Assembly (NCBI GenBank): GCA_017470425.1
Contig: JAFUYT010000026.1
Coordinates: forward strand, 118,291-158,696
DNA length: 40,406 bases
Direction of reading: 5' to 3'
Origin: Bacteroidaceae bacterium
Lineage (GTDB): Bacteria > Bacteroidota > Bacteroidia > Bacteroidales > Bacteroidaceae
In this document: one piece after another, positions 16,101 through 19,248 of the stretch
Numbering within the stretch: the stretch's first letter is position 1
Layout: every line of letters begins with the position of its first letter
Notes under the pieces: generated by a model
The model's database searches: none
Told to the model about the DNA's origin: nothing
The model's input: the letters and a program-made list of their open reading frames with translations, nothing else
Position numbers and translations under genes: made by a program

Positions 16101-16835
16101 GTCCTGACGTTGGCAAATAGTGGTAATACGGTCATTACAGATGTGTCTATCACAAAGGCCTCTCAGATCCTGACCTTGCCGAGTGCTATCCAGTATGCCG
16201 CCGGCACCTATCCCGCCGTCATCCTCGACCGCTCCTTCTCGGCCGAAAAGTGGAATACGCTGTGCGTGCCGTTCGCGTTTGATGCCAGTGACTTCAGCGG
16301 GGTGAAGGAGTTGAGCGCGATTGCGGTCAATGGCGACAATGTCAGCATGACATTTGCTGATGCTTCCACGATCGCGGCGGGTCAGCCGTACCTCGTGAAG
16401 AGCGATCTTGCGAGCGTGACCTTCAACGATGTAGCCCTCGACCCCAGCACCGCCGTCAGCAATACGATGAAGGAGGACGGCACGACGAGCGTGACCTTCG
16501 TGGGCACGTTCAGCGGCACGAACCTGACGAGCAGCAATAGCGATGCGTGGGTGGTCAGCAACAACAACCTCTACAATGTGAACTCCGATGTCACCGTGGG
16601 TGCCTACCGCGCATACTTCACCGTCGGTTCCACCGCAGGCGTCAAAGCCCTCACCTTCGACTTCAATGGCACAACTGGCATAGAGGCAGTTGACAGTTTA
16701 CAGATGACAGATGACAGTAAGGAGATCTATAACCTCGCTGGCCAGAAGTTAGACAATTCACAGTTCACGATTCATCATTCACAATTGAAGAGTGGCGTGT
16801 ATATCGTGAATGGGAAGAAAGTGTTGGTAAAATAA
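13122..16835 (+). CDS. Large secreted multidomain protein with C-terminal sorting-like tail (paralogue 1)
   Basis: The 1,237-residue protein starts with a signal peptide (MKRKLLVLLCAVMATVGVKA). The N-terminal part (about 25-340) has YYLYHP/FLFVG strand repeats suggestive of a lectin-like beta-trefoil. The middle contains carbohydrate-binding-like beta-sandwich segments (INTWSTEEAAVFSNPFYEYW, ISWLAFKNLNL) separated by alanine-rich helical stretches (YAPYNNIAALTALAAAKSI). Near 1,030 a block with WNTLCVPFAF and AAGQPYLVKSD is typical of Prevotella secreted proteins. The end, EIYNLAGQKL...GVYIVNGKKVLVK, resembles a type IX secretion/surface-sorting tail. It is a paralogue of the genes at 19308 and 32206. 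Most of the gene is AT-rich, but from about 16,160 it turns GC-rich, suggesting a mosaic. A small peptide gene follows at 16916. Substrate unknown; glycan binding is a guess. Confidence 0.85.
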   Translation: MKRKLLVLLCAVMATVGVKAYTGSAPTAGNTYYLYHPAHDQFLFVGLDDKYGVTPSVFNATPIYVETGGSGNSRTTFSFVIRGTKYYMYQNGGDGSLNTGSGSEFEPKPNEDNKYRLQTERYKPTIGAVTYRMLHAGTSGGQCSFENYKSSDNDGYEWQFIPESEVESARSAMAESCASTAANYAATSNGWERVTSVSDLHSSPENYFFAIFSANTTGLMLQATSNNAESQKLYYKTAIDPASSSEYLFEMENHESGGFALKSSAIGKYFANIGGAWDFHADQTSATSSNNTNLTLTYANGAYTIETAQTTNYVGLWTLTTNWYSTDKHLAGNKQSSLAGSFLIYRIPKQRLRNVNFTQCITNPSFETGNTDGWTVGASSDTGVRSVTQDDGKYAMSNSEGSYLFNTWWQGIPMTQNIGILPAGHYSLSAVTTTDQNAKTYLTVNSGHNDGAISTRGASVGVTNTYNFTLAEATEVSIGVVGCGNDEKAFDSNGYYWYKVDNFRLTYLGGMENLTAVSGKMNAAVNTAQQDAVSTYNSNKTVANYLDAIEAIAAAEASIAAYANAATYLSRVETLLATTNFYTPDAYDDVYGNYKTAYDAGTLDDATADALSYKVANYTGTERYDNNTANDLLIPGWTIGGNDARISESGFYINTWSTEEAAVFSNPFYEYWTWEGNSLEEQSISATMTDLDANRAYSLDVWVRVRERDNNTKVAGRVTLQMSNGDVVDLTAADQIGTTKFYQKQFTAYGKADGSGNLTVTFTVTAESNISWLAFKNLNLTALAGATEYSALNAAITAANANTLGFGEGEYAPYNNIAALTALAAAKSIDTETANTQTAVLTVTSNLTGASWSANVSDVDAVYNGDFAIGQGSPAANIQDYGWTRTNGWGQFCGDSDNSSTSKGTSYYNQPGSLQYGNAGYYTMPLKANTVYQLSFKYASWATNSNNSVTASVLNSSDGMAAVVYGKNGTAHTEADAFVTKTIKFVTGEAGDYVLTLANSGNTVITDVSITKASQILTLPSAIQYAAGTYPAVILDRSFSAEKWNTLCVPFAFDASDFSGVKELSAIAVNGDNVSMTFADASTIAAGQPYLVKSDLASVTFNDVALDPSTAVSNTMKEDGTTSVTFVGTFSGTNLTSSNSDAWVVSNNNLYNVNSDVTVGAYRAYFTVGSTAGVKALTFDFNGTTGIEAVDSLQMTDDSKEIYNLAGQKLDNSQFTIHHSQLKSGVYIVNGKKVLVK
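16688..16790 (+). repeat. Interspersed-repeat sequences translated within the secreted-protein tail
   Basis: 16688-16718 (TGACAG-type repeats) and 16753-16790 (CAATTCACAGTTCACGATTC-type repeats) look like the short repeats usually seen between genes in this group. Here they are in frame and encode VDSLQMTDDSK and DNSQFTIHHSQLK on either side of IYNLAGQKL. Confidence 0.6.
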
Positions 16836-16844
16836 GAAATGAAG

Positions 16845-16900
16845 AAAATAAGAAAATAAGAAAATAAGAAAATAAGAAAATAAGAAAATAAGAAAATAAG
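16845..16900 (+). repeat. 8-bp tandem repeat, seven copies of AAAATAAG
   Basis: Seven perfect copies run from 16845 to 16900, with partial units on each side, directly between the stop codon of the large secreted gene (16835) and the small peptide gene (16916). This is a slippage-prone tract. Confidence 0.9.
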
Positions 16901-16915
16901 AAATCTTTTATGATT

Positions 16916-17176: not shown

Positions 17177-17346
17177 TCTTGATTCATCCCTACAAAAGTT
17201 TTTTTGCCGAAAAATCCCTCACTCTCTCACACGTGTTGTCTGTCAGTTGGTTATGGGTGAGGGATGCGGTGATGGTGGTGAGGGAAATGACGTTTTCGGG
17301 TAAGGCTCCGAACGTCTTGAACCATGCCCCGTGAGGCATGGGTCAT

Positions 17347-17470
17347 AAGCTCGCGAGGTTATGGCTATAAGCACGCGAGCTTACGGGCTTAAGCACGCGT
17401 GCTTCACGGCATAAGCTCGCGTGCTTCACGCAATAAGGTCGCGTGCCTCCCGCCATCAGGTCGTATGCCT
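17347..17470. repeat. Tandem array, 22-nt period, palindromic core AAGC-N6-GCTT (array 1)
   Basis: Units begin at 17347, 17369, 17391, 17413, 17435 and 17457, exactly 22 nt apart. The core is best at 17391 (AAGCACGCGTGCTT, a perfect palindrome) and decays towards the ends. A further palindrome, CATGCC-N6-GGCATG (17323-17340), lies one unit to the left. No open frame explains it. It sits in the 627-nt gap between the peptide gene and the first toxin-antitoxin module. Confidence 0.8.
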
Positions 17471-17618
17471 CTGTTCCGAAGGTGGCGAGGCGGGCGTCAG
17501 AGGCCGCTGTGCTTTTCTTTGATACTTGCCATCGTTACACTGCGCAGCCTCTGTGTTGAAGCACAATGGTTGCTTGCGTTTTTGTGTTTTTGTCCCCCTT
17601 CGTCCCACTTTTTCCGCG

Positions 17619-17819
17619 TTTCCCTTTGCCACGTCCTGCCGATTGCTTACTTTTGCAACGTCAAACGTCTCCAACCGCCCTCATGTCGGTAGAGAACAAA
17701 CAGTTATCGGTACGATATGAATGTAGCATCCCTCAACAACCTCTGGTCTTACCTTCAGGGCCTGACGCTCACGCCCAGCAACAAGAGGTGGCTGGCCGAC
17801 CACCTGTATGAGGCTGCGA
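17619..17819 (+). repeat. Promoter plus antitoxin-head duplication, copy 1
   Basis: About 200 bp closely similar to 18464-18661: same promoter, same leader end (GTAGAGAACAAACAGTTATC) and the first 34 codons of the antitoxin (one amino-acid difference). Similarity stops abruptly inside both coding sequences. Confidence 0.85.
17625..17655 (+). promoter_or_regulatory. Promoter of toxin-antitoxin module 1
   Basis: TTTG (17625-17628), 19 nt, TACTTTTG (17648-17655). The leader to the antitoxin start is about 55 nt. Confidence 0.75.
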
Positions 17820-17986
17820 AGTCAGATACGGCGGTCGCAGAAGACCCCGCACTCCTTCAAGCTTCCGATAGGGTTTACATAGAAAATGGCGAAGTGAAAA
17901 TAGATCTCGTCACGGAGACAATGGGGCTTGAGGAGGCGCGAGACCTGTTGCACAAGGTGATAGATCTCGAATATTCCTTGCTATGA
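17717..17986 (+). CDS. Antitoxin of module 1 (RelE/ParE type)
   Basis: The 89-residue protein has a head (MNVASLNNLWSYLQGLTLTP through HLYEAA) almost identical to that of the antitoxin at 18560, then a different tail (about 36-89, ending LHKVIDLEYSLL) that would contact the toxin. The head probably binds DNA or dimerises; no classical HTH signature is obvious. The stop overlaps the next ATG by 4 nt (ATGA), as in type II toxin-antitoxin operons. Assigned from operon form and from the RelE/ParE-like partner. Confidence 0.75.
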   Translation: MNVASLNNLWSYLQGLTLTPSNKRWLADHLYEAAKSDTAVAEDPALLQASDRVYIENGEVKIDLVTETMGLEEARDLLHKVIDLEYSLL

Positions 17987-18284
17987 ACTATGTAATCAAA
18001 GACCGATGCATCAGGAATATCGCATCGTTCTACCATTACGTGGCGCAGAAATATAGTCACACGTACTCAGCCCAGATGATGCACAAGAATCTTGATGACG
18101 CCATGGATGCCATGTTCCTCATCGAGCAGTCGCTGCTTCGCCGTCGTCCTACGCTGCGGCGCTGGCAGGAGCAGGGGTGGCACATGGCGAAGGCGGGAAG
18201 TGGTTCTATGCCTACTCCGTCACCGACGACACGATCGTCATCGAGGATGCGTGCCACCAGCAGAACATGCACGAATCCGACTGA
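17983..18284 (+). pseudogene. RelE/ParE-family toxin gene with a frameshift
   Basis: The first frame gives MNYVIKDRCIRNIASFYHYV and continues through RRWQEQGWHMAKAG. It then reads nonsense into the downstream repeat array. In frame 3 the sequence from about 18190 gives GGKWFYAYSVTDDTIVIEDA then CHQQNMHESD and a stop at 18282-18284, a typical RelE/ParE C-terminal strand pair. One missing G in the GCGGGAAG tract near 18194-18198 would join both halves into a toxin of about 100 residues, the family's usual length. Either the toxin is inactivated, the tract is phase-variable, or there is a sequencing error. The antitoxin upstream is intact. Confidence 0.75.
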
Positions 18285-18296
18285 TCCCATCCTCTG

Positions 18297-18437
18297 CTTG
18301 TGGTGCGAAGATTACTAATCTTGTGGTGCGAAGATTACTAATCTTGTGGTGCGAAGATTACTAATCTTGTGGTGCGAAGATTACTAATCTTAAGGCACTA
18401 AGATTACTAATCTTACGGTATAAAGATTATGAATCTT
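18297..18437. repeat. Tandem array, 23-nt period, palindromic core AAGATT-ACT-AATCTT (array 2)
   Basis: Six units of 23 nt start at 18297. The first four are identical (CTTGTGGTGCGAAGATTACT plus AAT) and the last two diverge while keeping the core. There are no unique spacers, so it is not CRISPR. It begins 12 nt after the corrected toxin stop and ends shortly before the promoter of module 2. Confidence 0.9.
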
Positions 18438-18463
18438 ATTCTGCAAAGTAGAAATTTTCCCCA

Positions 18464-18661
18464 TTTCCCTTTGCCACGTCCCGCATTATGCTTACTTTTG
18501 CAGCGCCAATCCCTCCTACCGCACTCTACCCGGTAGAGAACAAACAGTTATCGGACGATATGAATGTAGCATCCCTCAACAACCTCTGGTCCTATCTTCA
18601 GGGTCTGACGCTCACGCCCAGCAACAAGAAGTGGCTGGCCGACCACCTGTATGAGGCCGCC
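18464..18661 (+). repeat. Promoter plus antitoxin-head duplication, copy 2
   Basis: Second copy of the block at 17619-17819. The leader between promoter and GTAGAGAACAAACAG has diverged most. Confidence 0.85.
18470..18500 (+). promoter_or_regulatory. Promoter of toxin-antitoxin module 2
   Basis: TTTG (18470-18473), 19 nt, TACTTTTG (18493-18500). It overlaps an upstream in-frame ATG at 18488, so translation must start later, at 18560. Confidence 0.75.
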
Positions 18662-18841
18662 GGAGAGACGGCGGTCGCAACAGCGAATGGCGTCACAGAT
18701 TCTTCTGTGACCAAGATGCTTGCTGAAGACGAACTCCCGGAAGCTGTGCGGCGATTGATAGGCGTCGCAGCTCCTGTGGACGACGATGACGTCGATTATC
18801 GGGACGCGTATTACTCACATTTAGCAAAGAAATACGCATGA
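18560..18841 (+). CDS. Antitoxin of module 2 (PIN type)
   Basis: The 93-residue protein shares its first 34 residues with the antitoxin at 17717 (R/K difference in PSNKKW). It then diverges into an acidic tail (EDELPEAVRRLIG, VDDDDVDYRDAYYSHLAKKY). The start is fixed by the paralogue and by the promoter at 18493-18500. The stop overlaps the toxin start by 4 nt (ATGA). The head is shared with a RelE-type module while the tail and toxin differ, so the tail is the likely toxin-neutralising part. Confidence 0.8.
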   Translation: MNVASLNNLWSYLQGLTLTPSNKKWLADHLYEAAGETAVATANGVTDSSVTKMLAEDELPEAVRRLIGVAAPVDDDDVDYRDAYYSHLAKKYA

Positions 18842-19248
18842 TGAGACTTTTCCTGGACACCAACGTTGTGATGGATATGTTGCAGAGGCGTGAGCCGTTT
18901 TTCTTGGCTGCTGCCAATCTGTTTGCATTGTCCGCAGCAGAAAAGGTGGAATTGTTCGCCTCGCCCATGACGTATGCTACGGCTTCTTATCTGATAGGGA
19001 AAAGAGACATCTCTCAAGTGAAGCCCCTTTTGTCCCAACTGAGGACACTGTCTCATGTTACAATTGCTGATGAAGCAACGATAGATCAATCTTTGGCCTC
19101 TGAGTTTGAGGACTTTGAAGACGGGCTCCAACATTTCTCTGCCACAAGGCATCACATAGATTATATCATCACGAGGAATAAGGATGACTTCTCTCATTCC
19201 CAAATAAAAGTTCTGACTCCTGCGGAGTTTATGACTTTGGCTCCATAG
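18838..19248 (+). CDS. PIN-domain toxin (VapC-like ribonuclease)
   Basis: The 136-residue protein has the PIN start RLFLDTNVVMDML (D7), an acidic cluster EFEDFEDGLQ (about 89-97) and DYIITRNKDDF (D108, D116/D117), the residues that bind Mg2+ in PIN nucleases. The second conserved acidic residue, usually in the SPxTxxE segment, is not evident (ASPMTYATAS), as in some Bacteroidetes PIN proteins. Length is normal. It overlaps its antitoxin by 4 nt. Expected role: cleavage of tRNA or other RNA when free of antitoxin. The next gene, a large secreted protein, begins 59 nt downstream without an evident promoter, so read-through from this module is possible. Confidence 0.85.
   Translation: MMRLFLDTNVVMDMLQRREPFFLAAANLFALSAAEKVELFASPMTYATASYLIGKRDISQVKPLLSQLRTLSHVTIADEATIDQSLASEFEDFEDGLQHFSATRHHIDYIITRNKDDFSHSQIKVLTPAEFMTLAP

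What the first reader, a model, noticed from the sequence alone, without database searches (positions are those of the whole stretch)
17619..19248. Two toxin-antitoxin modules share promoter and antitoxin head but have different antitoxin tails and toxins
About 200 bp (17619-17819 and 18464-18661), covering promoter, leader and the first 34 antitoxin codons, are nearly identical. After that point the antitoxin tails are unrelated, and the toxins are RelE/ParE-like in one case and PIN in the other. This is what one expects if a regulated head cassette is joined to interchangeable tail-toxin pairs. Shared DNA-binding heads could also cross-regulate both operons.
Basis: partly seen in the sequence, partly recalled or inferred. 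Interest (0 to 1): 0.72.

Follow-up and report, generated by a model that had tools for sequence, protein, structure and literature searches.

The report
Swappable toxin-antitoxin pairs sharing one head
Two neighbouring bacterial toxin-antitoxin pairs share the same promoter and antitoxin start but have different antitoxin ends and toxins, and the same start occurs in many rumen Prevotella relatives joined to at least six kinds of toxin, which suggests that these bacteria exchange toxins by swapping everything behind a common antitoxin head.

Summary
17610-17817 and 18455-18660 are copies (88%; head codons 94%), and the likeness runs on to about 17839/18679. Then the antitoxin tails are unrelated. 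Module 2 has a PIN_3 toxin. Module 1 has a ParE/RelE-like toxin whose frame is disrupted here.

The head is a 34-41 residue N-terminal segment, a predicted alpha-hairpin, without a credible match in Pfam, NCBIfam, PADLOC or PHROGs. It occurs in 54 of 139 genomes of the genus and 15 of 393 of the order; in a phylum sample 2 of 395, both of the order. Of 188 head antitoxins, 150 have an assigned toxin: PIN_3, VapC-type PIN, ParE, RelE, YoeB, MazF/PemK or a ParE-like class. Tail type tracks toxin type. DNA similarity between modules of different class ends near the head end in 96% of 721 matched pairs. On the head tree toxin class changes at least 28 times (minimum 6, shuffled 62).

One locus shows the swap: related genomes share both flanks and the head at 94-99% but carry a RelE or a PIN tail-toxin.

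So the cassette idea is right. DNA binding and cross-regulation are untested; promoters are shared only by recent copies. Modular antitoxins are known; this head family appears unnamed.

The parts
17625..17655 (+). promoter-like TTTG-N19-TACTTTTG of module 1
   Evidence: sequence; motif type recalled
17610..17839 (+). shared block, copy 1 (promoter, leader, antitoxin head to about codon 41)
17717..17986 (+). antitoxin 1 (89 aa): head codons 1-34 at 17717-17818, then a tail of the ParE-like class
17983..18318 (+). toxin 1 ORF, ParE/RelE-like, overlapping the antitoxin stop by 4 nt; reading frame disrupted relative to homologues after about 70 codons
   Evidence: fold of one intact homologue
18297..18434 (.). 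array of 23-bp palindromic repeats between the modules
18470..18500 (+). promoter-like TTTG-N19-TACTTTTG of module 2
   Evidence: sequence; motif type recalled
18455..18679 (+). shared block, copy 2
18560..18841 (+). antitoxin 2 (93 aa): head codons 1-34 at 18560-18661, then a tail of a PIN_3 class
18838..19248 (+). toxin 2, PIN_3 domain (136 aa), overlapping the antitoxin stop by 4 nt

Best explanation
These are two tandem type II toxin-antitoxin modules of a Bacteroidales lineage. Their antitoxins are built from a common N-terminal alpha-hairpin head (about 34-41 residues, probably a dimerisation and operator-binding part) and a toxin-specific tail that wraps the toxin. Tail and toxin travel together as a unit, and the head gene segment is the recombination joint: exchange within the head puts a new tail-toxin pair under an existing head and promoter. 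In the window the two modules carry different, long-separated tail-toxin pairs, but their heads and promoters were made alike by a recent copy (duplication or gene conversion) of about 225 bp. Shown: shared head, tail-toxin coupling, repeated change of toxin class, one in-place exchange. Inferred: type II neutralisation by the tail, dimerisation and DNA binding by the head, homologous recombination as the agent. Toxin 1 may be inactive here.
For: Copied block with unrelated tails. Head in 54 of 139 genus genomes. Among 188 head antitoxins the downstream toxins are PIN_3 39, ParE 36, VapC-type PIN 27, RelE 20, YoeB 12, MazF/PemK 10, ParE-like 6; 38 were not assigned (Pfam names of representatives). 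Tail clusters with two or more members and an assigned toxin hold one toxin class, except one cluster mixing ParE, RelE and YoeB. DNA similarity ends 75-130 nt after the ATG in 96% of 721 cross-class pairs that have a BLAST match, but in 13% of 566 same-tail pairs. Each window head is 94% like the other but only 65-77% like heads of its own tail class. Head tree: 28 class changes at least, against a minimum of 6 and 62.5 shuffled; AU test rejects one PIN clade, p 2.5e-5. In-place swap: L136/L137 (RelE) against L140 (PIN_3) share the upstream side to codon 33 (94% for L136; 96% and, next to the head, 99.5% for L137) and the downstream side from 8-12 nt after the toxin stop (95-98%). L137 also holds an extra operon, HigBA-like by eye, just before the head; its right end carries a 36-nt copy of the sequence that follows the toxins at this locus, as if this site takes up modules repeatedly.
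Against: No experiment shows that any of these pairs is a toxin and an antitoxin. The head model has only moderate confidence (pLDDT about 75, pTM 0.28) and no clear structural relative (where only 6 chains were compared), so DNA binding is unproved. Heads mostly stay with their toxin class (nearest head has the same class in 67 of 94, against 18.9 by shuffling), so swaps are occasional. Only one locus with both flanks shared and different tails was found, in a check limited to the short flanks held. Tandem neighbours were too few to separate duplication from gene conversion.
Confidence: 0.78

Rival explanations
1. Plain tandem duplication: one whole module was duplicated and the tail and toxin of one copy then diverged beyond recognition or were replaced once; there is no wider cassette system.
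For: The modules are adjacent and the copied block is continuous. Heads mostly keep their toxin class.
Against: PIN and ParE-like toxins look like different folds and would not arise by divergence while the head stays 94% identical. Each tail-toxin pair has its own relatives in other genomes with other heads. The same junction recurs in 96% of 721 matched cross-class pairs.
Confidence: 0.08
2. Concerted evolution for cross-regulation: heads within one genome are kept alike by gene conversion because all modules share one operator and regulate each other.
For: Window heads and promoters are nearly alike; a second tandem pair (L190, genome G471) has heads above all references for its tail classes (0.78 against a maximum of 0.75); 9 of 99 within-genome pairs exceed every reference; the small overall excess was reached by only 47 of 2000 random draws.
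Against: The effect is small: over 99 within-genome cross-tail pairs the mean percentile is 0.59 and mean identity 0.474 against 0.450 for random pairs of the same classes. The window genome's third head (L063) is only 54-56% like the other two. No operator common to the loci was seen by eye (110 of 142 upstream regions printed).
Confidence: 0.1
3. The head is not regulatory but a stability or chaperone-dependence tag, or a sensor for an outside trigger (such as a phage), shared so that one signal frees many toxins.
For: Head conserved ahead of unrelated toxins; no credible match to a known DNA-binding family.
Against: No direct evidence; a short N-terminal helical segment before a low-confidence tail is the usual layout of regulatory antitoxins (recalled; modular layout stated in PMC10440598).
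Confidence: 0.15

Closest known systems
Classical modular type II antitoxins (RHH, HTH, AbrB or Phd/YefM DNA-binding part plus toxin-binding tail)
   Same: One DNA-binding part combined with different neutralising parts and toxin families; the principle is stated in PMC10440598 (Discussion read).
   Different: This head is a 34-41 residue predicted alpha-hairpin without a match to those families by sequence. In the samples searched it is confined to Bacteroidales, and a swap at one locus can be seen.
Panacea (DUF4065, PanA) hyperpromiscuous antitoxin domain
   Same: One antitoxin domain paired with many unrelated toxin folds (PMC8832971, abstract read).
   Different: Panacea can itself neutralise toxins (PMC10440598); here the part that follows the toxin type is the tail. 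No Panacea match in 59 head antitoxins.
Unstab_antitox (PF09720)
   Same: Short helical antitoxin next to ParE/RelE-like toxins in Bacteroidales; a similar-looking helix pair by eye.
   Different: No Pfam match and no profile match (probability 0.5-0.7%; only 7 sequences on the PF09720 side). PF09720 was found in 9 of 60 genomes of the order; the window's own, among the 60, had none.
VapBC, ParDE, RelBE, YoeB-YefM and MazEF modules
   Same: Representative toxins match these toxin families.
   Different: The 59 antitoxins scanned match no curated antitoxin model.

Membership tests
type II toxin-antitoxin module | two small overlapping genes, antitoxin first | tested here: met
   ATGA overlaps at 17983 and 18838
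type II toxin-antitoxin module | toxin of a known toxin family, module 2 | tested here: met
   PIN_3, E 1.6e-16
type II toxin-antitoxin module | toxin of a known toxin family, module 1 | tested here: inconclusive
type II toxin-antitoxin module | antitoxin neutralises the toxin by direct contact | not testable with these tools
   needs bench work
type II toxin-antitoxin module | autoregulation through a DNA-binding antitoxin part | not testable with these tools
   promoter-like motif present; binding not shown
Panacea (DUF4065) | DUF4065 domain | tested here: not met
   no such match in 59 head antitoxins
RHH, HTH, AbrB or Phd antitoxin families | match to a curated sequence model | tested here: not met
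   no such match in 59 members in Pfam or NCBIfam at E 0.01
RHH, HTH, AbrB or Phd antitoxin families | same fold | tested here: inconclusive
   moderate-confidence model; only 6 chains compared
Unstab_antitox PF09720 | match to PF09720 | tested here: not met
   none of 59 members; weak local profile test also negative

The most novel reading that the evidence does not exclude
The head is an undescribed alpha-hairpin antitoxin domain that serves at once as universal regulator and as a recombination handle, so that Bacteroidales keep fixed chromosomal sockets (promoter plus head) into which tail-toxin cassettes of any fold are plugged, as caught in the act at the L136/L140 locus.
Probability: 0.35. 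Interest if true: 0.72.

Novelty: new variant of a known kind. Interest (0 to 1): 0.58.

Why it matters
Partner swapping among toxin-antitoxin systems is usually inferred from family trees (recalled). Here the joint is visible in DNA, recurs near the same codon, and one locus shows two alternatives in related genomes with both flanks intact. If the head is a regulator, it would be a very small promiscuous antitoxin part, and it makes the question of how new toxin-antitoxin pairs arise directly testable in rumen Prevotella relatives. The antitoxins lack a credible match in the libraries searched, so model-based annotation would miss the antitoxin half of these operons.

Tried and rejected

Rows dropped: 193 head ORFs became 188 after removing those without a start or shorter than about 49 codons. 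The head tree used 106 rows with an assigned toxin, score 45 or more and the common register. The cross-class DNA comparison used the earlier set of 125 antitoxins, only those over 55 residues and, for the 721 pairs, with assigned toxins and a BLAST match over the head. The 59 antitoxins of A3 are a hand-limited choice. Toxin classes come from single-linkage BLAST clusters named by a marker sequence, with Pfam run on representatives only. The genome assignment of loci was typed by hand from the listings.

Full report

The head elsewhere. With a single head sequence 25 of 61 genomes of the genus matched at E 0.01. With a profile, 54 of 139 matched at E 1e-4. In the order 11 of 393 matched, or 15 of 393 with a broader profile. 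In a phylum sample 2 of 395 matched, the window's own genome and one of the same order. A scan of named genomes gave 150 relatives, of which the best 80 were kept; by their titles these are Prevotella, Prevotellaceae, Bacteroidaceae, Bacteroides, Bacteroidales or Bacteroidia records, many from ruminants. Fifty-nine chosen antitoxins had only chance-like matches in Pfam, NCBIfam and PHROGs and none in PADLOC, and the head profile none in the PDB sequences. AlphaFold2 gives two helices (3-15 and 20-42) at pLDDT about 75 and a low-confidence tail. The window's genome has a third head before a YoeB-like toxin and a weak fourth one without a recognisable toxin.

Toxins behind the head. Of 188 antitoxins, 150 have an assigned downstream toxin: PIN_3 39, ParE 36, VapC-type PIN 27, RelE 20, YoeB 12, MazF/PemK 10, ParE-like 6. 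Six Pfam toxin families are confirmed on representatives over their cut-offs, and YafQ below its cut-off in one locus. The other 38 include contig ends, broken genes and modules without a recognised toxin. Tail clusters map to toxin class with one exception, a large single-linkage cluster holding ParE, RelE and YoeB.

The joint. In DNA comparisons of modules with different toxin classes the best similarity ends 75-130 nt after the ATG in 96% of 721 matched pairs (median 95; the head is 102 nt), whereas same-tail pairs run on (13% of 566 end there). The left end is usually at the ATG (median -3), so promoters are shared only by recent exchanges; the window's pair reaches to -107. The two window heads are 94% alike but only 65-77% like heads with the same tails. 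The nearest head has the same toxin class in 67 of 94 (18.9 expected by shuffling), so heads and tails are also inherited together. A head tree of 106 rows needs at least 28 changes of class (minimum 6, shuffled 62.5) and 16 changes of superfamily (minimum 2, shuffled 38.8), and the AU test rejects one PIN clade (p 2.5e-5). The tree rests on 102 nt and a quick search, so single branches are weak.

The swap in place. L136 and L137 (RelE tail and toxin) and L140 (PIN_3 tail and toxin) come from different genomes and share the upstream gene and the head to nt 99. Identity on this side is 94% for L136 against L140; for L137 against L140 it is 96% in the upstream gene and 99.5% over the last 191 nt to the head end. 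From 8-12 nt after the toxin stop they share the next gene at 95-98%, apart from an indel of about 115 nt inside it. Only the stretch from codon 33 to just past the toxin stop differs. L144 (PIN_3) shares the head and the downstream side at 96% but not the far upstream side. L137 has about 0.8 kb more between the upstream gene and the head. This insert holds two genes that read by eye as a HigBA-like pair, and it ends in a 36-nt copy (97%) of the sequence that follows the toxins at this locus, which suggests that other modules have stood at the same site. This was the only locus in the set with both flanks shared and different tails, in a protein comparison of the short flanks held.

Cross-regulation. 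If heads were kept alike within a genome, within-genome pairs should stand out. Over 99 cross-tail pairs (38 genomes had two or more heads) the excess is small: mean percentile 0.59, identity 0.474 against 0.450 for random pairs (47 of 2000 draws as high; 36 of 2000 without the window's genome), with 9 of 99 pairs above every reference. Cross-regulation is therefore most plausible as a local matter of tandem copies such as the window's.

Interpretation. The modular antitoxin with a DNA-binding part and an exchangeable neutralising part is established (PMC10440598 Discussion), and Panacea shows how far partner swapping can go (PMC8832971 abstract). The present case differs in the size and apparent novelty of the head, its restriction to Bacteroidales in these samples, the visible DNA joint and the in-place swap. 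I rate it a new variant of a known kind.

A further finding. Following the DNA downstream of head modules led to a structured element of about 160-250 nt. In 13 genomic copies examined (two of them, L278 and L288, already known beside head modules), the stop codon of a gene on the same strand lies within 25 nt of the element's start in 11. These genes read, by eye, as nucleotidyltransferase-HEPN pairs, PIN, MazF, ORF6N-type, DUF4160/DUF2442-type and an ATPase/STAS-like pair. A 20-row alignment supports 37 base pairs that I read from it: 94.3% of cells pair against 33-45% when slid, and 19 pairs show compensatory change against 12.1 in shuffles. No Rfam family matched. A covariance model finds it in 108 of 139 genomes of the genus, up to 18 matches in one (rough E-values, at most 21 candidates scored a genome). 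It lies in 17 of 185 head loci, seven of these with weak scores, always on the head's strand and downstream of the antitoxin (17 of 17). It is not in the window or its genome. In a second set of 30 loci (some repeating the first) the genes before it were mixed, many toxin-antitoxin-like by eye, several not or without a recognised gene. Its role is unknown; it ends in a terminator-like hairpin.

Noticed in passing
L124:2561-2830, L160:1439-1596 and copies in L266, L276-L288, L289-L318: A multi-copy structured RNA-like element with strong compensatory base pairing, without an Rfam match, often directly 3' of toxin-antitoxin or defence-like operons; 108 of 139 genomes of the genus. Not in the window.
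   Followed up: partly
L137:1185-1862: An extra HigBA-like operon (by eye) between the upstream gene and the head module; it ends in a 36-nt copy of the sequence that follows the toxins at this locus.
   Followed up: partly
window 17346-17470 and 18297-18434: Arrays of 22-23 bp palindromic repeats with AAG...CTT cores stand before each module; the second array's unit recurs as single copies at three other places of the genome with 2-3 mismatches.
   Followed up: partly
window 17983-18318: The ParE/RelE-like toxin gene is out of frame relative to its intact relatives; the two contigs that carry the region give the same ORF.
   Followed up: partly
G000 contigs C23 and C24: The window region occurs on two contigs with identical head and toxin ORFs, probably assembly redundancy.
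   Followed up: no
L012 (C13:39898 of the window's genome): A weak head-bearing antitoxin with no recognisable toxin after it; the next gene is a long ORF that looks like a secreted protein.
   Followed up: no
L022: A head antitoxin with a tail of the VapC-type PIN class followed by a nucleotidyltransferase-like gene instead of a PIN toxin.
   Followed up: no
window 16829-16903: Eight-base tandem repeat AAATAAGA downstream of the long ORF.
   Followed up: no
MT838635.1:4534-4635: A head-like segment in an unannotated 5.4-kb phage record from human faeces.
   Followed up: no
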